DNA from: a virus
Virus record (IMG/VR): IMGVR_UViG_3300047557_002769
Span: 1-64,000 of that record
Direction: 5' to 3' (one strand)
Length of the DNA: 64,000 bases
Shown: piece by piece, positions 11,163 to 61,661 of the stretch
How the letters are laid out: every line of letters begins with the position of its first letter
Position numbering within the stretch: position 1 is the first letter of the stretch
Notes under the pieces: model-generated
Seen by the model: only the letters and a program-made list of their open reading frames with translations
The model's database searches: none
What the model was told of the DNA's origin: nothing
Program-made: the position numbers and the translations under genes

Positions 11163-11739
11163 CTACAATCATAAACAGATCAATATTGACTGTCTGTCCT
11201 GATTTTTCTTTAGAATCGTTTTCAACTAGATTTAGATCTACCGCTACGTTTTTTGTCTTACTAGGGTAGACAGTTACGTTGGTATAACCTTTAGCTTTTA
11301 TAGCTTCAACTATCTCATCGCATTTGTAAAGAACATCCTCTATAACATAGACTTTTTTAAACTTACCGTGAAATACATTAAAGGTTTTTATTTGATCTTT
11401 ATAAAAATGTGACCCATCGTCAATAATCACATCTACACTAGGAAAATTGCCGGTAACTGACTGAACAGTTGAATCACCATTAACAATTCGGTTAGCTTTA
11501 GCATAGTTAATGTATTCTTTATCCTGGCTCTTGGGATTATTGTCTAAGCCATAGAGCTCAATTCCAGGGAACAAAGCTCTCCATGCTGCAAGAGATTTAC
11601 CCTGCTTAATGCCTATCTCTAATAAGGACTTTGTTTTTTCTGTAAAAACATCCTTATAATATAGATGATAGTCATGGGACTTAGCTTTATCAGTACCCAT
11701 AGCATTAAAAACCGTTAAATATTTTTCTGCATCATACAT
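11152..11739 (-). CDS. Class I SAM-dependent methyltransferase (195 aa)
   Basis: Rossmann-fold methyltransferase of the kind seen in glycan-modifying clusters (cephalosporin hydroxylase/CmcI-like or Methyltransf_24-like). Motif I is SLLEIGIKQGKSLAAWRALF (about residues 38-57), the acidic end of strand 2 is YGLDNNP, and IDDGSHFYKDQ follows the fourth strand. Its start overlaps the radical SAM stop, so it is coupled to it. It is part of the 9.9-14.9 kb modification island. The substrate cannot be read from sequence. Confidence 0.65.
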   Translation of the reverse strand: MYDAEKYLTVFNAMGTDKAKSHDYHLYYKDVFTEKTKSLLEIGIKQGKSLAAWRALFPGIELYGLDNNPKSQDKEYINYAKANRIVNGDSTVQSVTGNFPSVDVIIDDGSHFYKDQIKTFNVFHGKFKKVYVIEDVLYKCDEIVEAIKAKGYTNVTVYPSKTKNVAVDLNLVENDSKEKSGQTVNIDLFMIVVRK

Positions 11740-12742
11740 CTTTGTAATCCTCCAGTGTGAATTTAGTACCCTTCATCTTATTAATTTGAACCAGGTCATT
11801 ATTCTTCCATACCAGTACTTCGTTATCTTCGTATAAAAAATCACAATTTTTGCAGAACGGTACTTCGTCAAATCGATTCTCTGCATGCATCTGTCTTAAC
11901 CAGCGATAGCGTTCACCGTTCCACACCTCTTCGATTGATTTATCAGCAATAGAACCTAGATCAGCTTCATCGTCGCGACCTAGAGTCTGGCAGCAAGGTG
12001 CAATAGAAAGCTTACCACCAGTAGAAGAACCAGCTCTAATGGTTAGATCAGGAGAGAAAGGCCTACCGCATGTTCGTTTTTGGCCTCTTCGCTTATAGTC
12101 AGGGTCATACACACCTGACCAGTTATGCATTTTCCAGATTTCTGCATAGGTGCCTACAGGTTCGATAAAGTTCTTTTTATATTGCTCTACTTCAAAATCT
12201 ACTTTATCGTTATCTAAAATAAGGTGATAAGATGCAACAATACAATCACTTCTTGTCTCTTCAATATACGTTTTCATTTCGATAGCATTTTTCTTAATTT
12301 GATTAAAGCTATCTTGATTCATCCACTTAATATATTGAAGCTGATTGTATCCAATAACAGAAAAACGCGCTAATGCTAGACCGGCATCAACGCATTTCTT
12401 CATAAAATCACCTTTTAACTTAAATCCATTTGTATAGATAAAAGGCTTGGCGTTATATTTTCTAACGATTCTAATATAGTCAGGTAGATTGCTGTTAAGA
12501 GTAGGCTCACCCGAACCTTCAAGATTAACAACATTTAAACCGTAATGCGAAGCTTCTTCTACAATACGTTCAAAATCTACTAAAGAAATCTTTTTAAGCC
12601 AGTTCTTACCTCTACCGTCAGGCTCATTCGATTGAGGGCACATCTGACATGAGTAATTACACCCACCGTTAACCTCAATAACCGCTCTATCAACCGATAG
12701 GGGTATTGTAAAGTCTGTGTTCATTAGCGATCGCATGCTCAT
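11732..12742 (-). CDS. Radical SAM enzyme with SPASM-type C-terminus (336 aa)
   Basis: The [4Fe-4S]-SAM motif is exact: C28-x3-C32-x2-C35 in GGCNYSCQMCP. GSGEPTLN follows as the GGE-like SAM-binding motif. The C-terminal third has further cysteines in CGRPFSPDL, APCCQTLG and PFCKNCDF that match auxiliary-cluster (SPASM) spacing, found in enzymes acting on peptides and sugars. Its start lies inside the 3' end of the upstream gene (53-base overlap) and follows an AAAGGT ribosome binding site. Phage radical SAM/SPASM proteins are known in marine T4-like phages; the substrate is unknown. Confidence 0.85.
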   Translation of the reverse strand: MSMRSLMNTDFTIPLSVDRAVIEVNGGCNYSCQMCPQSNEPDGRGKNWLKKISLVDFERIVEEASHYGLNVVNLEGSGEPTLNSNLPDYIRIVRKYNAKPFIYTNGFKLKGDFMKKCVDAGLALARFSVIGYNQLQYIKWMNQDSFNQIKKNAIEMKTYIEETRSDCIVASYHLILDNDKVDFEVEQYKKNFIEPVGTYAEIWKMHNWSGVYDPDYKRRGQKRTCGRPFSPDLTIRAGSSTGGKLSIAPCCQTLGRDDEADLGSIADKSIEEVWNGERYRWLRQMHAENRFDEVPFCKNCDFLYEDNEVLVWKNNDLVQINKMKGTKFTLEDYKDV

Positions 12743-29099: not shown

Positions 29100-30437
29100 T
29101 TAAATTACTTCGACTGTAAGCTCACCTGATAGTGAAGCCGTAATCTCATTATTAATTGTATAATTACCAAATAGTTTCGTACCTGCAGGATGTAGTATAT
29201 CAAGAACGGCTTGCTTATACTTCTTAAGCTGCTCGTCTAACTCAAGTACATAAGAATAAGGTTGATAGAAGTCCTGATCTTGTAGCTTAATATCATCACT
29301 TAGGAAGCCTTCGTTAGTAGCAAAGAAACCAGGGTATTTTGCTTTTGAACCTAGGAGAACTTCAATAGTAGCAGTATCACCGATAGCACCTGTGTCTTCT
29401 CTAGTATCATTAAAGAACGTTCTAACAATATCACCACAGTAAGAAAGATCCATGTACGGATCAATAGAGCTTGTAAATGTAAATCTATTAATATAACCTC
29501 TGTCAGTGAAACCGTCTAAAATATCAGAAATATATATGGTGTCACCAGATATAAAAAACACACTAGCATTAATTTGCTCTGCACCAGGTGCAAAAGAAAA
29601 CAAGAAGTTAGATTCGTAACCAATACCGAAGCGTATAAATTCTACTCTCTGAATTGTACCGGCAGTTCCTATCTCGGTTATTCTAATTACCGATCTTCTA
29701 CCATCACCGCTAATCAAGGTAAATGTTTGACCTACTCTAAAATTTGTACCACCGTCAAGAACATTAACTAAGGTGGTTGTAGCAATAACTATACCTCTAA
29801 ACGAACCGTATTCGATATAATTACCCGTTACAATAGTAGGGTTATTAGTATTATCAATGAATAGCTCTACTGCATCCGGGCTAGTTACTTCAGAACCTTC
29901 TATTGTTTCTATAACGTCACTCTTATCTTTAATAATAGTTGTATCAACAATTTGATCCTGAGATACTACATTAACTCTTTGACCGATAATAGCAGCGGGG
30001 TCCCCTGTCAGTACACGCACAAAAACTGATACCGGTTGTTGCCATTTACCATCCGATGCAATAAGAATACTTCTTCCCGGGTAGTAAAATTCTACTTTTT
30101 TGTTTAACAGTACGCCTAAAAGTACTGTAAAGCTTCTCTCGTTTCCTTTGTTACTGTATAAGTCTTTAATGTTCTTAATAAGAAGCTTCGGATCAGATAA
30201 CACATTAGACGGAAGTTGTGTAATGTAGTTCTTCTTAAAATACTGAATAAAACTATCTACTGTGCGATCAATATCGTTATAGCTTCTTATATTTTGTAAG
30301 AGTTCTTGAGGATACTGATCTTGTTCTAAAAAACGGTAGTAAGCCTGTAGAAAGGCTACAAACTGTGGATAGTCTTCCCTGATAAATTCAGGAAGCTGTG
30401 ATGGTACGAGCTGGGAAAGTTTATCTCTTATGTTCAT
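29100..30437 (-). CDS. Baseplate-associated structural protein in the gp7 position (445 aa)
   Basis: N-terminus MNIRDKLSQLVPSQLPEFIR then EDYPQFVAFLQAYYRFLEQD is a pattern conserved in marine T4-like phages next to gp6. KKVEFYYPGRSILIASDGKW follows, and the C-terminus has LDEQLKKYKQAVLDILHPAG. It lies between gp6 and gp8 as T4 gp7 does, but is much shorter than gp7 (1032 aa), and I see no convincing similarity. Its stop overlaps nothing; its start overlaps the gp6 stop by 4 bases. Wedge component by position. Confidence 0.55.
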   Translation of the reverse strand: MNIRDKLSQLVPSQLPEFIREDYPQFVAFLQAYYRFLEQDQYPQELLQNIRSYNDIDRTVDSFIQYFKKNYITQLPSNVLSDPKLLIKNIKDLYSNKGNERSFTVLLGVLLNKKVEFYYPGRSILIASDGKWQQPVSVFVRVLTGDPAAIIGQRVNVVSQDQIVDTTIIKDKSDVIETIEGSEVTSPDAVELFIDNTNNPTIVTGNYIEYGSFRGIVIATTTLVNVLDGGTNFRVGQTFTLISGDGRRSVIRITEIGTAGTIQRVEFIRFGIGYESNFLFSFAPGAEQINASVFFISGDTIYISDILDGFTDRGYINRFTFTSSIDPYMDLSYCGDIVRTFFNDTREDTGAIGDTATIEVLLGSKAKYPGFFATNEGFLSDDIKLQDQDFYQPYSYVLELDEQLKKYKQAVLDILHPAGTKLFGNYTINNEITASLSGELTVEVI

Positions 30438-32266
30438 GCTACACTAACAAGATTTACTCTTACACCTTCGATAGCACTTGTAAAGAAGTTTTCAGCGCTC
30501 TCATCTAAAACTAGTAGTTGATTTTTTCCTACTGTAATATCATAAGAACTCTTTTGCAGTTCAGTGTAGACTTTAATGTCGCTCGCCCCTGCAGGGTAAC
30601 CAATAGGGGTAATCGTCGAAATAGTTACCTCACCGGTAGCATAGTTTACTGTGCCTACATTTTGTATAGTGGTACCGGTTGTAGAATTGTAAAGCTGAAT
30701 ATCCCCTGTACCGCTGTAGTTAGGAGGCATATCAACAGGTACATCTCTCAAACGAGCAGTAACAGTGCTACCTGCAACTGTTACAAAGAAACTAGTACTT
30801 TGTAGTGTAGCCGGGTGTAGTTTATTTGCAAATTTTAAATCAAAATTATTCGATGTATTTAAGGAAGGAGAGATTCTCTGGTTAAGCGTAATCTCTATAA
30901 CACAGCTTAGTATAGAGGGATTAGCTGCTAAGATTGCTGCCTGTAGCTGCGAGTAGTAGAACTTGCTATTAAATCTTTGAAGGTTCTGATCAAAGAAATC
31001 CGATATAGCTTGTTTAACAGCAGCCTCCACACCAGCTCTCGTTGTCGTTGTGGTGAGCGGGTTGTATTTTATTTCAACATCAAAATTTACATAAACAAAT
31101 TCTGGGTCTACGAAAATAGGCTCTACCGTTAACATCGTTCTGTCAGCCAAAACGGTGTTAATAATAAAGTTCTTATCTGTATCAGTAATAATATAACCGT
31201 TCGTTGGCTTTAAAGAGATAAACACCCTACCGTAAGCAGGGGGATTATTTTCTTCTCCACCCCATACATTTATTGATTCAGCCTGTGTAAAGTTCTGCTG
31301 AATAAGCGTAGCGTAATCCGATACAGTTACTGCTCTATTTTGCGAAGCATAAAACTTAGGTGCATAGAATTTTAAAGAGGTAATATCTTCTTTACCTGCG
31401 CCACCGGTAGAGTTAGACTCAGTTGTAATTGAAATGTTAGAGCTTCCACCGATCGCCGTACCAGAGGTAAAATTCTGCTGAATTGTTGAAGAGACATTAC
31501 ATGCTTCACCGTTAGTAGCAATGTATTGAACTCGAATAATGTTACCAGCGGTTAATTTCTTTCCAATTACACCATCGCCAAAGTATATCTCAAAGCGCTC
31601 TTGCGCGCTTTCTTGCAGGAAATAGACTGTAGATGTTCCATCTAACCCTGCAATGTCATCAGCAAGAGTATAAACTGTTGTGCTAACATTAGTTGCAGAT
31701 TCTTGCACTGTCACTGTTATAGTCGATGTGTCAATGTTTTGATTAGGGATCTGAAACAGCTCTCCAGGTCCTGGATTAGCTGAAACAAAACTAAACTCAA
31801 ACGCTTGGCCTTCAAACACATCTACATCTGAGAATGTGTAAGTATTATTTGTTGGAGATGTAGTGTACTCTCTTGTTGTAAGAAAGGTATAGCTTGTACC
31901 GTTAATATTAGTTGTAAACGGGCTGTAGATAGGTAGGTTAAGTGTAGATGGTGAGCCTGTCGGGTTCAGCACATCAATAGTTAAGCGCGCTCTCGCACCT
32001 CTAGCTGATCTCGGTGTATAGCCTAGATGCTTAGATAAGGAAACTGCTGATGATCTCTTAACAGCGGAATCCAAAAACATCTCATTAACAAGCATGTTAG
32101 CGAGATATGCGTTATAGTGAGTATTGTAAGCAAGTAAGTCAATAAGAACAGATAGACCTGATCCTTCAAAATCATAGTCAGAAAATTCACTCTGATTGTT
32201 GAGAAATGCTTTTAAGTTTGCCTTGATTTCATCGAAATCAAGTTCTGCTATTCTTAGATTAGCCAT
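30434..32266 (-). CDS. 6: Baseplate wedge protein gp6 (610 aa)
   Basis: T4 gp6-type baseplate wedge, J-like fold. N-terminus LDFDEIKANLKAFLNNQSEF then SDYDFEGSGLSVLIDLLAYN and HYNAYLANMLVNEMFLDSA is the diagnostic gp6 block; LGYTPRSARGARARLTIDV follows. C-terminal part has the J-like insertion FDVEIKYNPLTTTTTRAGVE and LRDVPVDMPPNYSG. Length is close to T4 gp6 (660 aa). Located between gp25 and the gp7-position gene as in T4. gp6 dimers hold the wedges together and rearrange on contraction. Confidence 0.9.
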   Translation of the reverse strand: MANLRIAELDFDEIKANLKAFLNNQSEFSDYDFEGSGLSVLIDLLAYNTHYNAYLANMLVNEMFLDSAVKRSSAVSLSKHLGYTPRSARGARARLTIDVLNPTGSPSTLNLPIYSPFTTNINGTSYTFLTTREYTTSPTNNTYTFSDVDVFEGQAFEFSFVSANPGPGELFQIPNQNIDTSTITVTVQESATNVSTTVYTLADDIAGLDGTSTVYFLQESAQERFEIYFGDGVIGKKLTAGNIIRVQYIATNGEACNVSSTIQQNFTSGTAIGGSSNISITTESNSTGGAGKEDITSLKFYAPKFYASQNRAVTVSDYATLIQQNFTQAESINVWGGEENNPPAYGRVFISLKPTNGYIITDTDKNFIINTVLADRTMLTVEPIFVDPEFVYVNFDVEIKYNPLTTTTTRAGVEAAVKQAISDFFDQNLQRFNSKFYYSQLQAAILAANPSILSCVIEITLNQRISPSLNTSNNFDLKFANKLHPATLQSTSFFVTVAGSTVTARLRDVPVDMPPNYSGTGDIQLYNSTTGTTIQNVGTVNYATGEVTISTITPIGYPAGASDIKVYTELQKSSYDITVGKNQLLVLDESAENFFTSAIEGVRVNLVSVA

Positions 32267-32273
32267 CTTATTC

Positions 32274-32666
32274 TTATCTTATTCTGCTTAAAGCAGTTGT
32301 TACAGTAATTGGTTTTTCGGAGTTAACAATTCTAAAATATACATCAACTGCAATACTGTTTTGATCTGGGGTTTCTCTAATTACTACATCATCGACAACA
32401 ACTCTTGGTTCGAATTTTTCAATTACCTGAAAAATCGTCTTTTTCATTATCTGCGTTGTTACTGGTGTAAAGTTCTCAAATAAAAGAGAGAAAATCTGAC
32501 ATCCGATCTCAGGATGAAATGGTCTTTCGTAGTTTCTTGTCGAAATTAAATTACGAACTGATGCCTTGACAGCTTCTTCGTCAAACTTTTTTGTTAGATC
32601 TGCTGTAGCAGGATTAATGCTAAACAGTAGATTAATATCTGAAAATTGTCTGGTTGTTCGTGCCAT
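32274..32666 (-). CDS. 25: Baseplate wedge protein gp25 (130 aa)
   Basis: gp25/lysozyme-like wedge family (the T6SS TssE homologue), 132 aa in T4. Landmarks: FSDINLLFSINPATADLTKK, VRNLISTRNYERPFHPEIGC (the conserved E-R-x-F-x-P-x-x-G), and IEKFEPRVVVDDVVI. Heads the baseplate gene string gp25-gp6-8. A GATAAATA late motif ends 5 bases before its ATG and no Shine-Dalgarno is present. Confidence 0.92.
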   Translation of the reverse strand: MARTTRQFSDINLLFSINPATADLTKKFDEEAVKASVRNLISTRNYERPFHPEIGCQIFSLLFENFTPVTTQIMKKTIFQVIEKFEPRVVVDDVVIRETPDQNSIAVDVYFRIVNSEKPITVTTALSRIR

Positions 32667-32681: not shown

Positions 32682-34889
32682 TTAGAGAGGTAGCAGGTAC
32701 GCGATAGAGTTACTATATTTCTGATGATTCCAGAACGTCATCGCTTGACCTCTGTTACCGCTTGACTTAAGAGTTATGTGAATCCATGGCGTATTACTGT
32801 AGCTGGTATAATGTAGTATAAAAGTATCGTAAGCTACAATGTCTGCTATAATTTTAGCAATGTAGTATACTTCATCAGGACATTTACCTTTAAACTGAAT
32901 ATCAATAGCCTGACCAGTGTAGTGTAGAGAATTAGGTGTGCAGTTCTCTCTCTTTCTATATCCGCTTGCAACTTGACATGTTGGAAACGAGTTATAGATA
33001 GGTTCTAATACATTGATCGCAAGTAAATGAAGATTATATACGATAGTACCAAATGAATATTCTGTTGTTGGTGTAATCTCTTCTTTTGTTATGGTAGCTT
33101 TAGTTGATAACTTTTCAATGTTAAAATTAGGGGAAAGATAAAAGTTTTCCGGAAGTGCTGTTGCGCTAAGTAAGCTTGTCTTACCAGTTGATATAGATGT
33201 TTTACCCGAAACACTTGTGCTTTCTACTAATCTAGGAGCGCGCTCAAAATTAGCTAAACTAGAGAGACCGGATTTAGTAATTGTATCTTTATGGTCGCTA
33301 TAGGTTTGAGATGATTCATCCGGCTCACAAAGCTTCATTGCATAGTTGTCTGCAATGTTCAAGAAGTTTGGATCACAAATAGGATCTACAACTACATCCT
33401 TTCTGCCTGACATTACCCCTATGTTAGATGGACTAGCTTGCTGCAGCTCCTGATTAGGTTGAGAAAGACCGGAGTTAAAGTGAATCTCTCCACTATCCCC
33501 AGTTATTAAATCACCACTTAGTAAATGAATGGTTTTTTCTGACTGAATATAGTTATCAACTGTATATGTGTTGATTCTTGTGTTACTTTTTATATCTGTA
33601 TATTCAGAACTATGGAGGTTTAGATTCACACCTGTTTTTACATTACCGCTATAATATGCTTCTATGTTGACGTTACCACTGGTAATGTTTACCTCTTCTA
33701 CCGCAGATAAGTTCATTTTACCACCAGCCATGGCAGTAATATCATTATGACATGTAATGTTAGTATTACCTTCTACTTCAATATTAGCATCTTGACCCAC
33801 AAAAATATTACATGCACCATTTACTGAGATCTCTGCATTACCTGTAATAGCTATTTTACCGTTCTTGTCAATAATCTCATAAGATGACCCTTTAGTTCTC
33901 TTAACCACTGAACCGTTGGCATCTATCTCTATGAAAGTACCTGAACGATGCCATACGTGCAGTCTTTCGGAACCAGAAGTATCATCTATTTCAATTACAT
34001 GGCCAGATTCTGTTTGCGTTACTTTATTATACGGGTATTCTGCTCTGTAAGGAGAAAGAGGCTGGTCCCAGGCTTCTCCTCCAGGTAGCTTGGCACCTAC
34101 CATTCTATCCCGATTCTTCTCCATTACGATAGTACCGGCTACATCACCGGTGGCTAATTTATTCGTCTCTGTTCGGCCTTCGTATTCTTCCGATGGATAT
34201 TTTGCAACCGGGTCAATAAAGCCTTCTGTATTAGTAATAAGCTTTGCTTTATTATCTTCGTTATTGACGTCGAATGATGTTGCTTCTCTAAGATACTTGT
34301 CTGATGTTGTAGATGCAAAAGCTTCGTCGGTTTTTTCTAAAGATTCTTCTGAACTAAAGCCTGTAATTAGATTATTAAAATTATCACTTACCCCGGGTAT
34401 CTTTGCAGTAGAAGGAAACAGGCCAGAAGAAAAATTATTTAAGGCTGTACTAGCAATATTATTAAGGGTGCTGCTTAAACCAGTACTTAGCGAAGCTTCT
34501 AGATTGTTAAAGTTTAATAAGGCTGCAGCTGAAGGGGGAAGAGCTGTTCTAATAGTATTACCGATGCTATTAACAAGATTATTACTAACCTGGGGTACAG
34601 TACCTCCAACCACACTATTGGTAAGTAAGTTGCTAATATCTCGACTGTTAAGATTACTGCCAACAATATCAACAGGATTGACCGGCCCAATGGCGCTAGA
34701 GGGAATATTATTAACTTGGGAATTAGCATCAGTTACTACTTTATTGATAGTAGTAGCCGCTGTATTGTTAATAATAGGAGCTAAGAGATTATTAAACGCC
34801 CCAGGTGGTAAATTAATATTGTTATTTTTAAGCTGAGTATTTACCGCGTCCAGAAGTGCTTGCTGCGCTGCTTGTGTATTAGAATTCAT
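32682..34889 (-). CDS. Central-spike needle protein (gp5 C-terminal type) fused to M15 zinc peptidase (735 aa)
   Basis: Three parts are visible. Residues 1-230: Asn/Leu-rich low-complexity helices. About 240-480: TIVMEKNRDRMVGAKLPGGE, a region like the entry to VgrG/gp5 spikes, then a triple-stranded beta-helix ladder (RTKGSSYEIIDKNGKIAITG; DANIEVEGNTNITCHNDITA). About 615-735: a D-Ala-D-Ala carboxypeptidase/M15-like domain with SLHYTGQAID (H656, D663) and PWIHITL (H704) as zinc ligands. It would pierce the outer membrane and cut peptide crosslinks. T4 gp5 instead has a lysozyme domain before the helix. Its upstream neighbour supplies the OB-fold and a glycosidase, so together they replace gp5. 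Confidence 0.75.
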   Translation of the reverse strand: MNSNTQAAQQALLDAVNTQLKNNNINLPPGAFNNLLAPIINNTAATTINKVVTDANSQVNNIPSSAIGPVNPVDIVGSNLNSRDISNLLTNSVVGGTVPQVSNNLVNSIGNTIRTALPPSAAALLNFNNLEASLSTGLSSTLNNIASTALNNFSSGLFPSTAKIPGVSDNFNNLITGFSSEESLEKTDEAFASTTSDKYLREATSFDVNNEDNKAKLITNTEGFIDPVAKYPSEEYEGRTETNKLATGDVAGTIVMEKNRDRMVGAKLPGGEAWDQPLSPYRAEYPYNKVTQTESGHVIEIDDTSGSERLHVWHRSGTFIEIDANGSVVKRTKGSSYEIIDKNGKIAITGNAEISVNGACNIFVGQDANIEVEGNTNITCHNDITAMAGGKMNLSAVEEVNITSGNVNIEAYYSGNVKTGVNLNLHSSEYTDIKSNTRINTYTVDNYIQSEKTIHLLSGDLITGDSGEIHFNSGLSQPNQELQQASPSNIGVMSGRKDVVVDPICDPNFLNIADNYAMKLCEPDESSQTYSDHKDTITKSGLSSLANFERAPRLVESTSVSGKTSISTGKTSLLSATALPENFYLSPNFNIEKLSTKATITKEEITPTTEYSFGTIVYNLHLLAINVLEPIYNSFPTCQVASGYRKRENCTPNSLHYTGQAIDIQFKGKCPDEVYYIAKIIADIVAYDTFILHYTSYSNTPWIHITLKSSGNRGQAMTFWNHQKYSNSIAYLLPL

Positions 34890-34890
34890 G

Positions 34891-36003
34891 TTATGCTCTA
34901 GCTAATTGTAATAAATCGTTTTTCTCAGATTCAAATCTACTCCTCACACCAGCTCTAATTCCTTCTGAACTTGATTTAAAAAATGTATTCACATTGTCAA
35001 TTTTATACTGACTTACCAGTAAGATAATATCTTTATCAGTTAACTCACTCTTACCTAATAGAGGTGTAGTAAATATCGATGTTCTAGCAGGGCCAAACTG
35101 CACGGCAGTCGACCAGATCAAATCTTGCACACCCGGGCCGTATTTAGATAGATCTAAACCAGCACGCTGTAGGTTAGCGATCATTACATCATAGTACTTT
35201 CTTTGTACATAATCATGCTGATCCTTCTTGAATTCAGCTGAATTAGAAGAAGCAATACTTCTCCATTTAGAGTCGAACTCTGAGGTAGCTGGTACAAGAC
35301 CGTCAAACTGATCTCTAAACTTAGAATTAGCAATATATTGCTGTACAGGTGAATTATTGCTGTTAGGTCTTGCCTTATCACCCTTCATAAACTTAGGTAA
35401 GAATGAAGCGAATTGATAAGAACCGTATGAAGCGCCGCCTAAATCACCAGCAGCAGCTCCGTTGTAATCGTTAATAGTACCTGGGCCTTTACCACCTGTC
35501 TCATATTTTTCTGACGTCTTACCCAGCTCCCAACCCGGTACAGGTGGTATACCGGTTTGAATTGGCTGACCTTGACTATCTGTTACCGGTGCACCTTGGC
35601 TGTCTCTCAGAACACTGGTAGCAGCAGGATTCTCAACAATTGGTTTTTCAGGTGGGGTAGTAAACACGGGGGCTTTTTCCCCTGTTGTTGTCTCACCAAT
35701 TTTCGTTGAAATGCAACCGAAGTATGTTGGCTGCTGCATATCTGCGCCATCGAGAAAGAAACCAACAACCCATGTACCTTCGATAGGCCCTAATGGAGAG
35801 GAACCCACACCTGATAGAGCTGCCGAGGTTGATGGATGAATAGGAATAGCCCAAGGTAGATCTTTTGTTGGTAAGAGTACCTTGCTCTCTGAGTGATAGC
35901 CAAAGATACGAACCTTACAACGACCCATCTTTTCAGGGTCGCGACGATCTTCTACTACACCTATCCACCAGATAAAACCGTCTTTGTTAAATATTCTCTG
36001 CAT
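34891..36003 (-). CDS. 5: Central-spike protein: gp5 OB-fold plus VgrG3-type muralytic domain (370 aa)
   Basis: Residues 1-105 form the gp5/VgrG OB-fold: FIWWIGVVEDRRDPEKMGRC, KVRIFGYHSES, LPWAIPIHPSTSA, GTWVVGFFLDGADMQQPTYF. A Pro/Gln-rich linker (105-160) leads to a lysozyme-like domain (about 163-370) starting SEKYETGGKGPGTIND and GGASYGSYQFAS. This matches the C-terminal peptidoglycan-hydrolase domain of VgrG3; E168 is the likely catalytic Glu. Unlike T4 gp5 there is no beta-helix after the hydrolase; that part is in the next gene, 1 base downstream. The hub sits below the gp27-like trimer. Confidence 0.8.
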   Translation of the reverse strand: MQRIFNKDGFIWWIGVVEDRRDPEKMGRCKVRIFGYHSESKVLLPTKDLPWAIPIHPSTSAALSGVGSSPLGPIEGTWVVGFFLDGADMQQPTYFGCISTKIGETTTGEKAPVFTTPPEKPIVENPAATSVLRDSQGAPVTDSQGQPIQTGIPPVPGWELGKTSEKYETGGKGPGTINDYNGAAAGDLGGASYGSYQFASFLPKFMKGDKARPNSNNSPVQQYIANSKFRDQFDGLVPATSEFDSKWRSIASSNSAEFKKDQHDYVQRKYYDVMIANLQRAGLDLSKYGPGVQDLIWSTAVQFGPARTSIFTTPLLGKSELTDKDIILLVSQYKIDNVNTFFKSSSEGIRAGVRSRFESEKNDLLQLARA

Positions 36004-36004
36004 A

Positions 36005-37357
36005 TTATTCTTCCAACGTCAATGAATCTTTAACCAGTTCCATAACCATGGTATGTTCATTCTTATTAATTTTATGTCTTATAGCTGTAATTAAATAGTA
36101 ACCTGAATAGAGCAGGTCTTCTTTTCTCTGTGTCTTGTCTTTTTCGCTGGCAGCACCGAGTGTGGGGTATGTAAAGTATAGAATACGACCGACCTGAACA
36201 TCAGTACGACCTGGTACTGTAATAACCATTCGTAGGTTGGTAAGATCTAATAGACTGGATTTTCTATTTCCGTAAATGTCTTTTATTCTCTCGTTGACAT
36301 TATTTTTAAAATTGTCGAAAAGCTTTTCATTAACAGGATAGAAGGAAATATCAGTAGCTGCATTTCTCAGTGTATCTTTTGTAAAGATAGGTATTGATCT
36401 TTTACCTTCACCGGACGAGTGAAATTGTTTCTCGTATTCATTTACATAGTCATAATCTACAACTTCATATACCTTATTATACACATCTAGTGTAATGAGT
36501 CTATTTGCAAGATAGCCGTTAGTGTAATTCTTTACATGATCAGTTGTGTCGATCATCTCTATATCTTTAGCAATAAAGTACTCACGTGAGATATTCGGTG
36601 TGTTCGCACCATCTCTAATATTAGAAGCTGCGATAGAATATGTACCTATTGAAAGATCGTTCTCTTTAGATTCTTTAAAGATATAGTCTACGGAACCGAA
36701 ATAGAAAGCTTTTGTTGATTCAAAGAAAAGATAGTTTTTAGCAGTACCTTCTTTTGGTATAGCTTTTGATGCCAACCATGAAATACACTTAAATGGCGAC
36801 CAGCCCGGAGATACAAATTTGACTTTATTCTCAGTAGGATTTAAAACAACCAGCGGTGTGACTTGTTCTATTTCTTTTACTTTTGTAGCTGCCTGGTCGA
36901 TTTGGAAAGTACGGTTGGTGTTAATAAAATCTTCGTAAATTCGGCCTGCTACTTCGTGAACTGTGCCTTCGAAAGGAAGGAATAAAGGTAACAAAATATC
37001 ATAGAATAACTCGATAGATGCAAAATGCATCACGAACGTCTGAGTATTATTATCTCTTATAATATTTCTATCTGAGATTTTAAAAATACGGAAAGTTTTT
37101 TGAATCTTAGAATCGAAAGAAGGAGTTTTTATTCGTAGTATTAAGAGTTCTTCACCGACAATTTTTGCCTTTTCAATTAAGTTTAAACTATCAGATACAA
37201 CAATATTACCTTGAAGAAATGTAGAGAACATATCTTCAAAAATGTTTACTTCGACTAAGAACTCTGTTAAGTCGAAGACAATATTATCTGTGCTAATTAA
37301 TTTAAGCTCTTCAATGACAACGTCACCAGCGCGCTGTATACCTTCTTTACTGGGCAT
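36005..37357 (-). CDS. 27: Baseplate hub protein, gp27-like (450 aa)
   Basis: Begins GDVVIEELKLISTDNIVFDL then TEFLVEVNIFEDMFSTFLQG, NIVVSDSLNLIEKAKIVGEE, a tail-hub (gp27/VgrG N-terminal) domain pattern with RTFRIFKISDRN-like strands. The middle has KFVSPGWSPFKCISWLASKA; the C-terminal TVPGRTDVQVGRILYFTYPT and GYYLITAIRHKIN fit the hub barrel where the spike attaches. It lies directly before the OB-fold spike gene, as gp27 and gp5 partner in T4. T4 gp27 has 391 aa. Family reading is by landmarks and position. Confidence 0.65.
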   Translation of the reverse strand: MPSKEGIQRAGDVVIEELKLISTDNIVFDLTEFLVEVNIFEDMFSTFLQGNIVVSDSLNLIEKAKIVGEELLILRIKTPSFDSKIQKTFRIFKISDRNIIRDNNTQTFVMHFASIELFYDILLPLFLPFEGTVHEVAGRIYEDFINTNRTFQIDQAATKVKEIEQVTPLVVLNPTENKVKFVSPGWSPFKCISWLASKAIPKEGTAKNYLFFESTKAFYFGSVDYIFKESKENDLSIGTYSIAASNIRDGANTPNISREYFIAKDIEMIDTTDHVKNYTNGYLANRLITLDVYNKVYEVVDYDYVNEYEKQFHSSGEGKRSIPIFTKDTLRNAATDISFYPVNEKLFDNFKNNVNERIKDIYGNRKSSLLDLTNLRMVITVPGRTDVQVGRILYFTYPTLGAASEKDKTQRKEDLLYSGYYLITAIRHKINKNEHTMVMELVKDSLTLEE

Positions 37358-38060
37358 TTACTTGCTCTAAAATATTTTTTAATTCGGTAATCACTGCTTG
37401 CACGTACTGTGGTTTAAGTACTTTAATTCTTCTTCTCGATTCATTTTGTTCATCTTCGTAAACCATATTTGTAACTGCAGTAATACCTGGGATGGTTTGG
37501 CTTTGAATAATATTAGCTGTAATGGATGAATTACTTAATAACCGTACTTGATCACCAGTTCCAAATCCGCCAGCTGTTACAACAACATTAACATTAGAAG
37601 AGCTTATCTTGGTCGTTATGTATCCTGTACCAGTATTAGTATTATTCACGATTACATCACCGGCGTTAAAATTAGTAAAGCCAGATGTCGAGTTTAAGTA
37701 CACATTACCATTAACTTCGTTAAGTGTTGTATCGTTTATGTAGTGATGTATTGCATCACGATCAGCATACTTACCGTCAGTATAAAGAGTAAGATCGTTA
37801 GTCGATAAGACCCAATCAAAACGGGGATCGAGTATTTCGTTTAAGTGCAAAATAATCCAATGAAGTTCGGGATTATTATAAAATTTATCGGCCACTATCT
37901 CAGGTGTATCACCATCTCTTACATCATACTCATCGTAAATAGATAAATTGTTTTTAATTTCCTGATCGATAACAATTCTTACTAGAATGTTCTTAACTAG
38001 CTGAGTCGTTTCTCTATCATCTAATGAATAGAGAGTATAAGGAAAGTTGGTGAAGTACAT
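37347..38060 (-). CDS. 53: Baseplate wedge protein gp53 (237 aa)
   Basis: N-terminal MYFTNFPYTLYSLDDRETTQ; core YDVRDGDTPEIVADKFYNNP then ELHWIILHLNEILDPRFDWV aligns with T4 gp53 PEELANAIYGNPQLYWVLLM and NDNYDPYYGW, the LysM-like wedge motif. The C-terminal half differs and includes a repeat-like FTNFNAGDVIVNNTNTGTG segment; the last part (ESRRRIKVLKPQYVQAVITE) is helical like gp53. It overlaps gp27-like by 11 bases and gp48 by 1 base. Confidence 0.85.
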   Translation of the reverse strand: MYFTNFPYTLYSLDDRETTQLVKNILVRIVIDQEIKNNLSIYDEYDVRDGDTPEIVADKFYNNPELHWIILHLNEILDPRFDWVLSTNDLTLYTDGKYADRDAIHHYINDTTLNEVNGNVYLNSTSGFTNFNAGDVIVNNTNTGTGYITTKISSSNVNVVVTAGGFGTGDQVRLLSNSSITANIIQSQTIPGITAVTNMVYEDEQNESRRRIKVLKPQYVQAVITELKNILEQVNAQ

Positions 38061-39175
38061 TAGTAACCTTCCTTAATCATTTTCTTGGTAAGGATCTCGG
38101 TCTCTCTAAATGTTAGAGATAAATTAATTTCGGTTGGCTCTCCACCTCTAAACGAAGAAAACTGCTCACCACCATACGATACATCCATGCTTTCAAGCAC
38201 ACAGGAAGCCATCTTATGAAAATAAGTATTTTTCTCAGTACCATAATAATAGGTAATTTGAAATTCTGACGGATAGATAAAGAACAGCTTACCTTCAGAA
38301 ATTTCCGGGTGCATGTGAAACTTAAATAACTCGATTATACTCTTTACCTGTCTAACTTCTTCAGGGCTTTTAGGTAGAAATTTATACTTAAAAGCAAAAG
38401 CTCTAAAATCTACTGATTCAAATAATACTTCTTTAAACGGGTTGAGTGCTACTTTTGCGCTTGCGCCGACCAGGGCAGCTGCATCAACAGAACCAAAAGC
38501 TGATGGAATTTTAGCTAGCGCAAGGCCAGTTGCAGTCGCTGCTTCACCTGTAGTCTTTCCCGTGACAATACCTGCGGCGTTTGCTAGAATACCTGCAAAA
38601 GTACCCAGTTCTTTATTGGCATAATTCATACCGTATTTAACGGTAGGCGGACCATCCATGTATAGCGCAATTACATCCGATATACGAAATAATGTATCTG
38701 GTTTGAGTAAGGTGCTTGCATTTACTACAGTAGCTGCTGCAGCTGCACCTGCTGCCGCTCCGATGACGTTCACTGTTGTGCTTTGTTGTCTGTTGCCTGT
38801 GGAAGTAGGCGCACCACCAGTTCTACCAAATAGACCTTGAATTTTCTTTGTAATACCGTATCCGATTGCAGCCCCAGCCAGCCCTGCACCGGTAGTTACT
38901 GCTGTTTGTAGTTCTTTTTCTGTTAAGCTGGCATCTGACTGTCTTTTTACCTCAAACAGTCTTGCATCTTTGTTAAACTCAGACTTACCTCTCACATTGA
39001 TTTGAAACTCAACATAATGCTTAAGGTCTGAGCCGCCAAGGTCGGACGGGTAAACCAAAGTATTAATGTTGAACTTATTGTCTGCTGGACTAGATGACTG
39101 CTTGGCGCTATCGTTTCTAATAGCATCTTTGTATAGCGCAGTTAATCTATCTCTTGCGTCTTCTTGAATAGGCAT
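38060..39175 (-). CDS. 48: Baseplate tail-tube protein gp48 (371 aa)
   Basis: Caps the baseplate hub where the tail tube starts. N-terminal INTLVYPSDLGGSDLKHYVE then FQINVRG; a Gly/Ala-rich middle with two hydrophobic stretches (AGLAGAAIGYGITKK; VIGAAAGAAAAATVV). C-terminal tube-like block FRAFAFKYKFLPKSPEEVRQ, VKSIIELFKFHMHPE, LFFIYPSEFQITYYYG and MASCVLESMDVSYGGEQFSS, with FRGGEPTEINLSLTFRETEI, typical of gp48/gp54. Length equals T4 gp48 (364 aa). First gene of the minus-strand baseplate operon, opposite gp4. Confidence 0.85.
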   Translation of the reverse strand: MPIQEDARDRLTALYKDAIRNDSAKQSSSPADNKFNINTLVYPSDLGGSDLKHYVEFQINVRGKSEFNKDARLFEVKRQSDASLTEKELQTAVTTGAGLAGAAIGYGITKKIQGLFGRTGGAPTSTGNRQQSTTVNVIGAAAGAAAAATVVNASTLLKPDTLFRISDVIALYMDGPPTVKYGMNYANKELGTFAGILANAAGIVTGKTTGEAATATGLALAKIPSAFGSVDAAALVGASAKVALNPFKEVLFESVDFRAFAFKYKFLPKSPEEVRQVKSIIELFKFHMHPEISEGKLFFIYPSEFQITYYYGTEKNTYFHKMASCVLESMDVSYGGEQFSSFRGGEPTEINLSLTFRETEILTKKMIKEGY

Positions 39176-50351: not shown

Positions 50352-51122
50352 TTACTCGGTTGAGTCCTCATATTTTAGCTTAGCAAGAATATAATCTCTA
50401 ACTAAAGAGCTTCTTACAATATCATCTACTTCAAATTCAATTCTAGTAAAAGCATTCATATGATGTGCAATGTCAAAGAACTTTAACAGGCCGGATTTAT
50501 CATTACTCTTTTTAAGATCAGTCTGTCTATAATCACCGCACCAAATAATTTTCGATCGATAACCGACACGAGTCATTACGGTATCAATCTCTTCAAAGTT
50601 CATATTCTGCATCTCATCCACAATAATAATTGCATCGTCAAAACTCATACCCCGAATGAACGATGTAGAAATGAATTCTATATGACCTTGTTCAGAAAGT
50701 CTATCGTATGCGTCTTTCCTGTCGAATAATGTATGACAAATTTGTCTATATGGTTGTTGATAAATTTCTAGCTTCTCGTCTACGTCACCAGGTAGGTGAC
50801 CCATCTCGCGGGACTGTACAGCTGATCTTACTACAATGATTTTATTAAAGGGATTAGTTTTTTCGAGGACTTCCTCTAGTGCTTTATAAAGTGCAATGAA
50901 AGTTTTTCCTGTCCCAGCTACCCCGTGTAATGCGATAAAATAGTCTCCACGTTTATAAGCTTCAAAAAATCTTTTTTGATTTTCCGTTAATGGGTTAAAT
51001 GTTCTTAAATTGTCTAACTTTAATTTTAGTGTGTTGTTTGTGCTTGGTTGTTTTGTATGTGGGCGTTCTTCAGTATTTGTTTCGTTTGTGACAGTGTGTT
51101 TTGCAATTCTTTTGTTAGACAT
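50352..51122 (-). CDS. phoH: PhoH-like ATPase (256 aa)
   Basis: P-loop NTPase common in marine phages. Walker A ALHGVAGTGKTFIALYKAL, the PhoH signature VVRSAVQSREMGHLPGDVDE, Walker B DDAIIIVDEMQNM and the sensor KIIWCGDYRQTDL. N-terminal 45 residues are polar linker. The start was set at 51122, which has GAGGT in front; the open frame upstream runs through the terminator hairpin and is not plausible. The biological role of phage PhoH is unsettled; RNA-related helicase or nuclease activity is proposed for the family. Confidence 0.92.
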   Translation of the reverse strand: MSNKRIAKHTVTNETNTEERPHTKQPSTNNTLKLKLDNLRTFNPLTENQKRFFEAYKRGDYFIALHGVAGTGKTFIALYKALEEVLEKTNPFNKIIVVRSAVQSREMGHLPGDVDEKLEIYQQPYRQICHTLFDRKDAYDRLSEQGHIEFISTSFIRGMSFDDAIIIVDEMQNMNFEEIDTVMTRVGYRSKIIWCGDYRQTDLKKSNDKSGLLKFFDIAHHMNAFTRIEFEVDDIVRSSLVRDYILAKLKYEDSTE

Positions 51123-51133
51123 AATACCTCTAC

Positions 51134-51164
51134 AAAAAAAAGACCACAGGGGGCCCTGTGGTCT
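51134..51164 (-). terminator. Rho-independent terminator before phoH
   Basis: On the minus strand an 11-bp GC-rich stem (AGACCACAGGG with CCCTGTGGTCT, tight loop) is followed by eight T residues (51141-51134). Separates the late-promoter gene at 51198-51443 from phoH. Confidence 0.92.
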
Positions 51165-51197
51165 AGGTGGAGTTAAAAGAAAAGAATAGTTCAATAA

Positions 51198-58087: not shown

Positions 58088-58607
58088 TAATCAGCATGTC
58101 CCCTGATCCGGGTTTAAGCGTACCTTCTTTTTCAGCGCGTTTAAACATTCGATCTTTATCTTTTTCGGAAGCTGTAAATGCCATGCGCCCGGTCTTCTTA
58201 CCAACAATCCTAGAAATTTCACCCCAGCCATGAAACTTATGATCTGGATCATGCTTTTTATCTTCTGGAGCTTCAGGTACGATAATATCACCGCTAGCGT
58301 CTCTTACTGCATGAATACAACAAACGACAGTATCTGGAGTAAGAGCTGTGATTTCGTGCTCTCTAAATGAACGAGTTACAAAGGTTGAAACAGCTTCGTA
58401 CTCTTTTGTTTCTTCTTGAATACCGACCTCAGGAACAGCGGAAAACTTGACTCTTACCCTACCAGCTGCGACCATTGTTACATGATCATAATCATGATGA
58501 TGCCCACAGTAAGTCTGATTTGCCTCGGTAAATCGCATCTCCTTAACATAGATGTTATGCTGGAAGATATGATTAACTTCCATTTTTAAGTTTTCATTCT
58601 TATTCAT
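58077..58607 (-). CDS. Cupin-fold protein (176 aa)
   Basis: Cupin motif 1: YCGHHHDYDHVTMVAAGRVR (three His available for metal, G at the end); motif 2: HEITALTPDTVVCCIHAVRD. The C-terminus is charged (ASEKDKDRMFKRAEKEGTLK). Single-domain beta barrel; metal binding likely. It sits between NrdB and dCMP deaminase, overlapping both. A role in small-molecule or nucleotide metabolism is guessed from position. Reaction unknown. Confidence 0.65.
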   Translation of the reverse strand: MNKNENLKMEVNHIFQHNIYVKEMRFTEANQTYCGHHHDYDHVTMVAAGRVRVKFSAVPEVGIQEETKEYEAVSTFVTRSFREHEITALTPDTVVCCIHAVRDASGDIIVPEAPEDKKHDPDHKFHGWGEISRIVGKKTGRMAFTASEKDKDRMFKRAEKEGTLKPGSGDMLINED

Positions 58608-59593
58608 GCTTTACCCCAGACATCATCCCAGCTACCAGACAAGGCACCCTTAGCATAGTCCGTTGCGCGGTTCTCAAAGAAGTTGGTATGCGTTGGTGCA
58701 TTGATCATTTCTTCAACCCAGGGGAGCGGATTTTTCTTAACCTTCATAATTCCCTTAAGGCCCATGCTGAGAAGGCGACGATCAGCAATATAGCGGATAT
58801 ACTGTTTAACGTCACCACTGTCCAGATTAGCCATAGGACCCATAGCAAATGCCAGGTCAATAAACCGATCTTCGAGTTCCACCATTTTTTCAGCAATTGT
58901 ATACAGCTTTGCTTTAAGCTCATCGTTCCAGATCTCCGGATTTTCTTTTATATATTCCTTAAAGAGCTTAATCATATTTTCTGTATGCTGAGTCTCATCA
59001 ACGATAGACCAGGTAATGATCTGCCCCATACCTTTCATTTTACCATGACGAGGAAAGTTAAGCAGCATGATAAAGGAGCTAAACAACTGCATACCTTCGG
59101 TAAAGGCAGAAAACACAGCGATATGAGTAGCAGTAGACTCAATAGTTCCATTCTTACTAGAAACTTCTAGTACATAGTCATGCTTGTCTTTCATCTCCTG
59201 ATATTCTAGAAACTCGCTATAGGTAGTCTCGGGCATACCTAGCGTTTCAATAAGATGAGAGTAGGCGGCAATATGAAGCGCTTCACGAGCAGCAAAGCCC
59301 AGTAGCATCATACGTACTTCTGGCTGAGGAAAATAAGGTAGATAGTTCTTTACATATCCCCCGGCTACGTCAATATCACCCTGAGTAAAGAAACGGAAGA
59401 TATGGGTTAGGAACTTCTTTTCATTTTCAGCTAGCTTCTTCCAATCTTTTACATCTTCTACCATTGGAACTTCGGTATGAAGCCAATGACTTTGTTCGTG
59501 CTTTAACCAGGCGTCGTATGCCCAGGGGTATTGAAACGGTTTAAAGTAGCTACGCTCGTCCATAAGCGTAAGAGAATTAGCTTTTTTGATCAT
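58604..59593 (-). CDS. nrdB: Ribonucleotide reductase beta subunit, class Ia (329 aa)
   Basis: Makes the tyrosyl radical for NrdA. Di-iron ligands by alignment to E. coli NrdB: D73 (FTQGDIDV), E104 and H107 (REALHIAAY), E166 (FTEGMQLF), E200 and H203 (VDETQHTEN); the radical Tyr is Y111. All are present, so it is a standard Fe/Tyr enzyme. Start 59593 overlaps the thioredoxin stop as ATGA; an ATG 12 bases upstream is in frame. The C-terminus SWDDVWGKA would contact NrdA. Confidence 0.93.
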   Translation of the reverse strand: MIKKANSLTLMDERSYFKPFQYPWAYDAWLKHEQSHWLHTEVPMVEDVKDWKKLAENEKKFLTHIFRFFTQGDIDVAGGYVKNYLPYFPQPEVRMMLLGFAAREALHIAAYSHLIETLGMPETTYSEFLEYQEMKDKHDYVLEVSSKNGTIESTATHIAVFSAFTEGMQLFSSFIMLLNFPRHGKMKGMGQIITWSIVDETQHTENMIKLFKEYIKENPEIWNDELKAKLYTIAEKMVELEDRFIDLAFAMGPMANLDSGDVKQYIRYIADRRLLSMGLKGIMKVKKNPLPWVEEMINAPTHTNFFENRATDYAKGALSGSWDDVWGKA

Positions 59594-59832
59594 TGGCTTA
59601 CCCATTGTTGAAGAACGGTTGATGTTACAGCTCCAGAAATACGTTTAATTTCAGTATTACCTTCTAACAAAACCATAGTAGGAACTGAACGAATACCGAA
59701 GTCCTGAGCAATTTCAGGGTTTACATCAATATCAACAATCTCAATAGGAATGTTTAAGTTTGTATTTTCAATAGTTTTAGCAAGTGCTTTACAAGGCTGG
59801 CACCAGTCAGCAGTGAATCTAATAATTCTCAT
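59590..59832 (-). CDS. Thioredoxin-like reductant (80 aa)
   Basis: Short thioredoxin fold with active site W-C-Q-P-C-K (RFTADWCQPCKALAKTIE) and cis-Pro RSVPTMVLLEG. At 80 residues it is close to the mini-thioredoxins/NrdH size. Placed between nrdA and nrdB, so it likely re-reduces the NrdA C-terminal CxxC. The ATG at 59832 is 2 bases after the nrdA stop and follows GAAGG; the frame extends 24 bases upstream without a site. Confidence 0.88.
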   Translation of the reverse strand: MRIIRFTADWCQPCKALAKTIENTNLNIPIEIVDIDVNPEIAQDFGIRSVPTMVLLEGNTEIKRISGAVTSTVLQQWVSQ

Positions 59833-59834
59833 TT

Positions 59835-61661
59835 TTAACCTTCGCATGCGAGACACGTATCGCCTTCGATGATGGCTTTCATGTCGAGTTCTTTGATAGC
59901 TGCTCTTTCTACTTTCCTAGCAACCTTGTCTGCTTTTCCAATCTTCTCTGAACGGCAATAGTAAAGTGTCTTAAGGCCTTGTTTCCAAGCCATAAAATGT
60001 ACTGCGTGCAAGTACTTCACATTGACATCAGGTCTAAAGAACAAATTCAGCGATTGCGCTTGATCGATATACGGTTGACGATCAGCAGCGTGCTCGACAA
60101 CCCAGCGCTGATCGATTTCCATAGAGGTCTTAAAGACGTCTTTGTTCCAATCGTCCATCCAGTCCAGATGTTGAACTGATCCATCGTTAGCAATAATAGA
60201 ACGCCATACGTCATCTGCCCACCCCTCAGGGTGTGATTCGGCTTCTTTCTGAATGATAGCGTCTAAGTAGCGATTTTTATTTAGGTGAGCCCCGGAAAGA
60301 GTGTCTTGACGATAGGCATTAGCGCGATAAGGCTCAATACTAGGGCTAGTATTACCCATAATAATTGAACTACTAGCATTAGGAGCAACAGCCATAACGT
60401 GACTGAATCGTCTACCGGTCCCTGCAGCGTCGGGAGCCTCACCTCTAATCTTTCCAAGAGCGAGGTTAGCATGATCTAACTCAGTCTTTATGTGTTTAAA
60501 GATTTGTAAATTTCTTGACTTCGCGAGGGCAGACTCAAAAGGAACATTATTCCGTTGGAGATAGGCATGATAACCAAGAGCACCCACGCCAATAGAACGC
60601 TCGCGCCCAGCGGAAAACTTAGCCCTTGAGATAGTGTCAGGAGCATTATCAATAAAGTACTGAAGTACGTTATCAAGCATCTCTGCAACGTCCCGCAAAA
60701 ATAATTTATTAGATTTCCAATCATCAAAGTACTCCAGGTTAACAGAAGACAAACAACATACAGCCGTTCTATCTTTATCAGTAGGCAGAATAATCTCACT
60801 GCAAAGATTAGATTGCTTGATTGACAGACCTAGCTTCTTTTGAAACTCAGGCATGCTACGATTACTAGTATCAATAAAGTGAAGATAAGGCTCACCTGTC
60901 TGCATTCTCAGATCGAGTACTCGCTGCCAAAGATCTCTAGCTGATACCACCTCACGTACCTCTCCGTTATGCGGGTCGATAAGAGGCCAGGAATCGTCTG
61001 CATGAGCATCAATCATACATCTCTCAATAATCTCCATAAAGCTATCAGGAATATTAATTCCATGATGTAGATTAAGAGCACGCATATTAGGGTCACCCGT
61101 CGGCTTTCTCATTTCAAGAAAGATGAGAATGTCAGGATGAGAAATATCAAGATATGCAGCGTAACTACCGCGACGAGTCCTGCCTTGTCGATAAGCGAGC
61201 GATGACGCGTCATACGTACGAAGATGCGGCATGACTCCAACCGATTTGTCATCCGATGCACGAATACCAATACCAAGTCCAACACCACCACCTAGCATTG
61301 ATAGCCAGTTAACTTCAGAAAGTGTATCTACCAGACCTTCAGCCGAGTCGTCAAGATAAGGTAGGAAGCAGCTAATAGGCAACCCACGCGACGAACGACC
61401 AAATGACAAAATAGGTGTGGAATATGATAACCAATGTTTACTGGCATATTCATATAGTCGCTGGGCGTGCTCCTCATCTGTACTGAATGCAGCTGAAACG
61501 TATGCCAGTCTTTCTTGAGGCGACGTTTCATCTTCCCTCATATAACTTTCTTTTAAGCGCTTGATACCCAGCTCATCGAATAAAGAATCGCGAGACGGGT
61601 CGATAAAAATAGTTCTATTTTTTTCAGCGAAATTTATAGCAATACCATGTCTAGTGGTCAT
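59835..61661 (-). CDS. nrdA: Ribonucleotide reductase alpha subunit (608 aa)
   Basis: Converts NDPs to dNDPs. Catalytic residues: GLPISCFLPYL (redox Cys), SIKQSNLCSEIILPTD (N-x-C-x-E), AVCCLSSVNLEY (second redox Cys), KTLYYCRS (Tyr pair) and C-terminal D-T-C603-L-A-C606-E-G. The N-terminus begins directly with the catalytic part and lacks the ATP-cone of E. coli NrdA (761 aa), so activity should escape dATP shut-off. Followed within 2 bases by thioredoxin and nrdB. Confidence 0.93.
   Translation of the reverse strand: MTTRHGIAINFAEKNRTIFIDPSRDSLFDELGIKRLKESYMREDETSPQERLAYVSAAFSTDEEHAQRLYEYASKHWLSYSTPILSFGRSSRGLPISCFLPYLDDSAEGLVDTLSEVNWLSMLGGGVGLGIGIRASDDKSVGVMPHLRTYDASSLAYRQGRTRRGSYAAYLDISHPDILIFLEMRKPTGDPNMRALNLHHGINIPDSFMEIIERCMIDAHADDSWPLIDPHNGEVREVVSARDLWQRVLDLRMQTGEPYLHFIDTSNRSMPEFQKKLGLSIKQSNLCSEIILPTDKDRTAVCCLSSVNLEYFDDWKSNKLFLRDVAEMLDNVLQYFIDNAPDTISRAKFSAGRERSIGVGALGYHAYLQRNNVPFESALAKSRNLQIFKHIKTELDHANLALGKIRGEAPDAAGTGRRFSHVMAVAPNASSSIIMGNTSPSIEPYRANAYRQDTLSGAHLNKNRYLDAIIQKEAESHPEGWADDVWRSIIANDGSVQHLDWMDDWNKDVFKTSMEIDQRWVVEHAADRQPYIDQAQSLNLFFRPDVNVKYLHAVHFMAWKQGLKTLYYCRSEKIGKADKVARKVERAAIKELDMKAIIEGDTCLACEG

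What the first reader, a model, noticed from the sequence alone, without database searches (positions are those of the whole stretch)
32682..36003. gp5 central spike split in two, with two different wall-cutting domains
T4 gp5 is OB-fold + lysozyme + beta-helix. Here one gene has OB-fold + VgrG3-type glycosidase, and the next has a beta-helix needle + M15 peptidase (H656, D663, H704). The puncturing device would thus cut both glycan strands and peptide crosslinks. The peptidase is at the C-terminus of the needle, i.e. probably at or near the tip.
Basis: partly seen in the sequence, partly recalled or inferred. Interest (0 to 1): 0.7.

Follow-up and report, generated by a model that had tools for sequence, protein, structure and literature searches.

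The report
Two-gene phage spike with two wall-cutters
An uncultivated T4-like virus makes its cell-puncturing spike from two adjacent genes rather than one, each carrying a different cell-wall-cutting domain; the arrangement is real and conserved in dozens of relatives, but its pieces have precedents, and the second cutter has an altered active-site residue in this virus.

Summary
Observation confirmed. gp5A (34891-36003, minus, 370 aa) is a gp5 OB domain plus a VgrG3-like glycosidase (PF21277, 2e-55). gp5B (32682-34889, minus, 735 aa) is a helical N-terminus, the T4 gp5 needle and a C-terminal M15 zinc-peptidase fold (best PDB fold match 1LBU). Zinc ligands H656, D663, H704 are invariant in 98 distinct sequences. 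The 163-kb record holds no other gp5. The split is no error: of 77 distinct gp5A/gp5B pairs, 74 are joined within a few bases; no fused frame was found.

Corrections: (i) split gp5 and M15 on gp5 both occur in isolates (Melnitz; pf16, Cr30, BUCT-ZZ01; phiM12), so this is a new variant, not a new kind; (ii) the M15 catalytic-type glutamate (E in 91 of 98) is His693 here and in a few close relatives, so peptidase activity in this virus is uncertain; (iii) the genome encodes a separate PAAR tip protein, so the peptidase probably hangs beside the tip. The gene boundary recalls T4's gp5*/gp5C maturation cleavage, though the enzyme sits at a different point in the chain.

The parts
34891..36003 (-). 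gp5A: OB domain + VgrG3-like glycosidase, 370 aa
35692..35985 (-). OB fold (gp5A residues 7-104), expected to seat on the gp27-like hub
   Evidence: PF06714 5.9e-14; phrog_430 2e-39 residues 7-104
34921..35526 (-). VgrG3-like glycosidase domain; candidate catalytic pair E168/D187
   Evidence: PF21277 9.1e-57; 4noo 2e-42; E168 in 75/81 and D187 in 79/81 sequences
32682..34889 (-). gp5B: helical N-terminus, OB-tail segment, needle, M15 domain, 735 aa
34245..34889 (-). gp5B N-terminal ~215 residues, predicted alpha-helical; conserved in close relatives, no detectable homologue in the 15 isolate proteins compared
34113..34238 (-). OB-tail segment (second part of the Gp5_OB model), placed directly before the needle
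   Evidence: compare
33480..34070 (-). triple-stranded beta-helix needle (gp5B residues ~274-470; end approximate)
   Evidence: 1pdl/1k28, E ~5e-17
32691..33152 (-). M15-type zinc-peptidase domain (gp5B ~580-733): ligands H656 (32922-32924), D663 (32901-32903), H704 (32778-32780); His693 (32811-32813) replaces Glu
36005..37357 (-). gp27-like hub protein by synteny; phrog_350 tail protein
   Evidence: no gp27 match in the PDB by sequence
37347..38060 (-). gp53 baseplate wedge
32274..32666 (-). gp25 baseplate wedge
30434..32266 (-). gp6 baseplate wedge

Best explanation
This is the central spike of a T4-like contractile-tailed phage made from two adjacently translated proteins. gp5A trimerises through its OB fold on the gp27-like hub and carries three VgrG3-type glycosidase domains. 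gp5B trimerises through its beta-helix needle, docks under the OB ring through the OB-tail segment before the needle, and carries three M15-fold domains on ~100-residue tethers near the tip, where a separate PAAR protein probably caps the needle. On contraction the needle pierces the outer membrane; the glycosidases, and in most relatives the M15 peptidase, then open the murein. Because the parts are separate chains, no T4-type cleavage between lysozyme and needle is needed. Shown: genes, domains, predicted M15 fold, conservation, tight gene coupling, absence of another gp5 in the record. Inferred: assembly, docking, timing and both activities; peptidase activity in this virus is the least certain step because of His693.
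For: Domain matches; synteny gp48-gp53-gp27-like-gp5A-gp5B-gp25-gp6; no other gp5. 77 distinct gp5A/gp5B pairs, 74 of them tightly joined (38 with 1-base and 31 with 4-base overlap, the rest 1-3 bases apart), none fused. M15 fold and invariant zinc ligands. Glycosidase pair E168/D187 75/81 and 79/81. Purifying selection on the M15 domain, also in the His693 group (dN/dS 0.07-0.11 where dS was measurable, otherwise saturated). PAAR-M15 fusions place M15 at a spike tip in other phages. T4 gp5 is cleaved between lysozyme and needle and the pieces stay together (PMC3004832).
Against: No biochemistry or virion proteomics. His693 replaces a near-invariant Glu and position 689 is Thr where 89/98 have Gln. 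The M15 Pfam score of the window protein is below the curated cut-off. The gp27 homologue is assigned by synteny and phrog only. The needle was modelled as a monomer and is low-confidence. The record may be a fragment.
Confidence: 0.72

Rival explanations
1. The spike is as described, but the M15 domain of this virus and its closest kin is no longer a peptidase: with His in place of the catalytic Glu it binds murein or zinc, or stabilises the tip, and only the glycosidase cuts.
For: E693H and Q689T in the window; His or Asn at 693 in six other distinct sequences, those placed on the tree falling with the window in one small clade where other members keep Glu. In the Hh/DD-peptidase fold the equivalent Glu (hedgehog E177) takes the proton from the catalytic water (PMC4102407, PMC6027127).
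Against: All three zinc ligands, R645, S654 and W702 stay invariant (98/98), and the His group is under purifying selection. 1LBU, an active M15 enzyme, shows no Glu at this position in the alignment (its base lies elsewhere, from memory), so the position is not fixed in the family and His might substitute.
Confidence: 0.3
2. Ordinary modular variation: T4-like phages swap enzymes on gp5 freely, and splitting the gene has no functional meaning.
For: Isolates show many combinations: OB-GH19-needle-M15 in one chain (BUCT-ZZ01), OB-Phage_lysozyme2-needle-M15 (Cr30), OB-needle-M15 (pf16), OB+VanY-like then needle+M15 (Melnitz), OB-needle then M15 gene (phiM12), OB-needle then PAAR-M15 (Milchi, Vibrio 207E48.1). 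gp5 diversity was already read as cell-wall adaptation (PMC7029224).
Against: The split with these two enzymes is kept across a wide range of divergence with no fused counterpart found, so it is at least a stable arrangement.
Confidence: 0.4
3. The split is a sequencing or assembly artefact (frameshift or false stop in one long gp5).
For: The two genes lie one base apart.
Against: 74 of 77 distinct pairs show the same close junction, and the offsets fall in all three relative frames, so no single lost base or false stop could explain it.
Confidence: 0.01

Closest known systems
T4 gp5 (baseplate hub and tail lysozyme, 1K28/1PDL)
   Same: OB fold, lysozyme, triple beta-helix needle; the mature T4 spike also consists of separate gp5* and gp5C chains after cleavage at Ser351-Ala352 (PMC3004832)
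   Different: Two genes instead of one cleaved precursor; VgrG3-like instead of T4L-type lysozyme; enzyme before rather than after the OB-tail segment; extra helical domain and C-terminal M15 domain
Methylophilales phage Melnitz gp5 pair (MZ577095-98)
   Same: Split gp5: OB protein 346 aa followed by needle+M15 protein 667 aa
   Different: First protein carries a weak VanY-like (M15B) match, not a VgrG3-like glycosidase; second lacks the helical N-terminus
Synechococcus phage BUCT-ZZ01 gp5 (ON615601)
   Same: Same order: OB, glycosidase, OB-tail, needle, M15
   Different: One polypeptide of 939 aa; glycosidase is GH19
Vibrio cholerae VgrG3 C-terminal domain (4NOO/4NSO; PF21277)
   Same: Glycosidase domain on a spike-type protein, 2e-42 to 2e-55
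   Different: T6SS effector at the C-terminal end of VgrG, not a phage OB protein
phi29 gp13 and similar two-enzyme tail-tip proteins of Gram-positive phages
   Same: Glycan and peptide cutters on the same tail tip (PMC9863714)
   Different: Podovirus knob of a Gram-positive phage, one polypeptide, not a gp5-type spike; the same review says ectolysins of Gram-negative phages have a single catalytic domain

Membership tests
T4 gp5 central spike | N-terminal Gp5 OB domain | tested here: met
   PF06714 5.9e-14, PDB gp5 6e-19
T4 gp5 central spike | triple-stranded beta-helix needle homologous to gp5C | tested here: met
   1pdl/1k28 5e-17; phrog_430; Foldseek 9f4a/1k28 E ~3e-5
T4 gp5 central spike | both parts on one polypeptide | tested here: not met
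   two genes in the window and in 77 distinct pairs
T4 gp5 central spike | T4L-type lysozyme domain | tested here: not met
   no PF00959 match in the record; replaced by PF21277
T4 gp5 central spike | located in the virion baseplate with gp27 | not testable with these tools
   synteny only
VgrG3-like glycosidase (PF21277) | score over curated cut-off, full-length domain | tested here: met
   188 bits vs cut-off 27, positions 1-183/183
VgrG3-like glycosidase (PF21277) | Glu/Asp pair conserved | tested here: met
   E168/D187 align with E and D of 4noo, conserved 75/81 and 79/81; their catalytic role was not read from a paper here
M15 zinc peptidase | Hedgehog/DD-peptidase fold | tested here: met
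   AF model pTM 0.80; 1LBU best hit E 4e-4, TMq 0.51; BFVD M15A proteins E to 1e-16
M15 zinc peptidase | H-x6-D and distal His zinc ligands | tested here: met
   H656, D663, H704 invariant 98/98
M15 zinc peptidase | catalytic acidic residue (hedgehog E177 equivalent) | tested here: not met
   His693 in the window; Glu in 91/98 sequences
M15 zinc peptidase | Pfam PF08291 over curated cut-off | tested here: not met
   window protein 14-18 bits vs 23.2; other members reach E 1.1e-6
M15 zinc peptidase | peptidoglycan peptide hydrolysis | not testable with these tools
   no assay

The most novel reading that the evidence does not exclude
A clade of uncultivated T4-like phages has replaced T4's maturation cleavage of gp5 by two genes, and builds a spike with two active wall enzymes of different chemistry, a glycosidase at the OB ring and a zinc peptidase tethered near the tip; in the window's subgroup the peptidase works with His in place of the usual Glu.
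Probability: 0.3. Interest if true: 0.6.

Novelty: new variant of a known kind. Interest (0 to 1): 0.42.

Why it matters
T4 gp5 is the textbook cell-puncturing device, with one lysozyme held back by a linker and the needle until the needle detaches. A conserved two-gene version with two chemically different murein-cutting domains goes against the generalisation that ectolysins of Gram-negative phages have a single catalytic domain (PMC9863714), if the host is Gram-negative. It makes the purpose of T4's cleavage testable: a natural spike that never has the linker. No record among 50,697 phage records covers 80% of either protein, so the exact arrangement is known only from uncultivated viruses. 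The parts are familiar and precedents exist, which limits the surprise.

Tried and rejected
Frameshift or assembly artefact: rejected by 77 pairs. Second gp5, T4-type lysozyme or further M15/VgrG3 domain elsewhere in the record: none. Homology of the gp5B helical N-terminus with the corresponding region of isolate gp5 proteins: none by hhalign. Direct PDB sequence match for M15: only sub-threshold hedgehog hits and an unrelated top hit; fold comparison succeeded instead. T4 gp27 match for the hub by sequence: none. psbA as a cyanophage marker: absent, so host undetermined. The Melnitz and pf16 papers do not discuss a split gp5 or an M15 domain. The shuffled-label test on the His693 tree is weak: one near-copy (L073) was left unlabelled because its M15 sequence had been merged with that of L072.

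Full report
What is there. The two genes lie at the stated coordinates on the minus strand in a standard T4-like baseplate cluster: gp48-like (38060-39175), gp53 (37347-38060), a gp27-like tail protein (36005-37357), gp5A (34891-36003), gp5B (32682-34889), gp25 (32274-32666), gp6 (30434-32266). The window is part of a 163,234-base IMG/VR virus record.

gp5A. Residues 7-104 match the gp5 OB domain (PF06714 5.9e-14; T4 gp5 in the PDB 6e-19) and residues 160-361 the complete VgrG3-like domain (PF21277 2e-55; 4noo/4nso 2e-42). The Glu/Asp pair that aligns with that domain, E168 and D187, is kept in 75 and 79 of 81 distinct sequences.

gp5B. Residues 274-383 match the T4 gp5 needle (5e-17). The C-terminal domain is weak by single-sequence Pfam (PF08291 0.048), but every one of 25 aligned sequences hits that family, best 1.1e-6. 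An AlphaFold model of the domain (pLDDT 80, pTM 0.80) has the zinc DD-peptidase 1LBU as its best PDB neighbour (E 4e-4, probability 1.00), followed by hedgehog domains, which share the fold; in the viral library it matches proteins already named 'Peptidase M15A, C-terminal' and pf16 gp5.

The residue at the hedgehog E177 position, which takes the proton from the catalytic water in this fold (PMC4102407, PMC6027127), is Glu in 91 of 98 sequences but His in the window (His693) and five others, and Asn in one. On a tree those that could be placed sit with the window in one small clade (SH-aLRT 97) that also holds Glu members (long branches make details unsure). The domain remains under purifying selection in that group (dN/dS 0.07-0.11 where dS was measurable). 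Either His substitutes, or the domain has lost peptidase activity but is still needed.

The split is genuine. Searches of viral contigs gave 77 distinct gp5A/gp5B pairs. In 38 the start codon overlaps the stop by one base, in 31 there is a four-base overlap, in five the start lies 1-3 bases after the stop; three have 0.5-1 kb between. No frame fuses OB-VgrG3 with the needle. This is the pattern of translational coupling, not of a frameshift. The pairs were found with gp5A and gp5B queries, so the sample is biased toward this arrangement.

Domain order differs from T4. The second part of the Pfam OB model (positions 76-114) is found in gp5B just before the needle (34113-34238; also in relatives). 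In T4 that segment precedes the lysozyme (alignment to T4 residues 110-135). Here the order is OB - glycosidase // helical N-terminus - OB tail - needle - M15. BUCT-ZZ01 has the same order of OB, glycosidase, OB tail, needle and M15 in a single chain, with a GH19 domain. So this is not T4 gp5 cut in two, although the break falls between enzyme and needle as T4's maturation cleavage does (Ser351-Ala352, PMC3004832).

Precedents. Melnitz has a split gp5 with a VanY-like match on the OB protein and M15 after the needle. pf16, Cr30 and BUCT-ZZ01 have unsplit gp5 with a C-terminal M15. phiM12 has a separate M15 gene after gp5. Milchi and Vibrio phage 207E48.1 have a PAAR-M15 fusion behind an OB-needle gene, which independently places M15 at a spike tip. 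The Melnitz and pf16 papers do not discuss these features. No phage record covers 80% of gp5A or gp5B.

Tip. The record encodes a separate 103-residue PAAR protein (around 102.8-103.0 kb), the expected cap of the needle, so M15 is probably tethered near rather than at the very point.

Mechanism. Best reading: gp5A seats on the hub and supplies glycosidases; gp5B forms the needle and supplies M15 domains near its tip; separate chains make T4's cleavage unnecessary. Gene content, domains, predicted fold and conservation are shown; assembly, docking, both activities and the host are inferred or unknown (psbA absent).

Verdict. Confirmed observation, partly supported interpretation, new variant of a known kind.

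Noticed in passing
window 32811-32813 (gp5B residue 693): His in place of the near-invariant Glu of the M15 active site; shared with L063, L065, L066, L067, L072 (Asn in L078).
   Followed up: partly
L054 1459-1770 (record position ~102.8-103.0 kb): Separate 103-aa PAAR tip protein far from the baseplate cluster.
   Followed up: partly
window 34245-34889: About 215-residue helical N-terminal region of gp5B, conserved among close relatives but without detectable homologue in the isolate proteins compared; function unknown.
   Followed up: partly
L002 3871-4908 (Melnitz): OB protein with a sub-threshold VanY-like (M15B) match, so this isolate may carry two different peptidases on its split spike.
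   Followed up: no
L005 5972-6955 and L007 6439-7440: PAAR-M15 fusion proteins (Vibrio phage 207E48.1, Pseudomonas phage Milchi): peptidase on the spike tip.
   Followed up: partly
L046 3968-6796 (Synechococcus phage ACG-2014j gp5): gp5 with a Calx-beta domain (1.8e-14) and a second gene annotated as hub/lysozyme directly after it without a Pfam match.
   Followed up: no
window 58604-61661: Ribonucleotide reductase small and large subunit genes; PhoH-like gene at 50352-51194; radical-SAM-like protein at 11732-12742.
   Followed up: no
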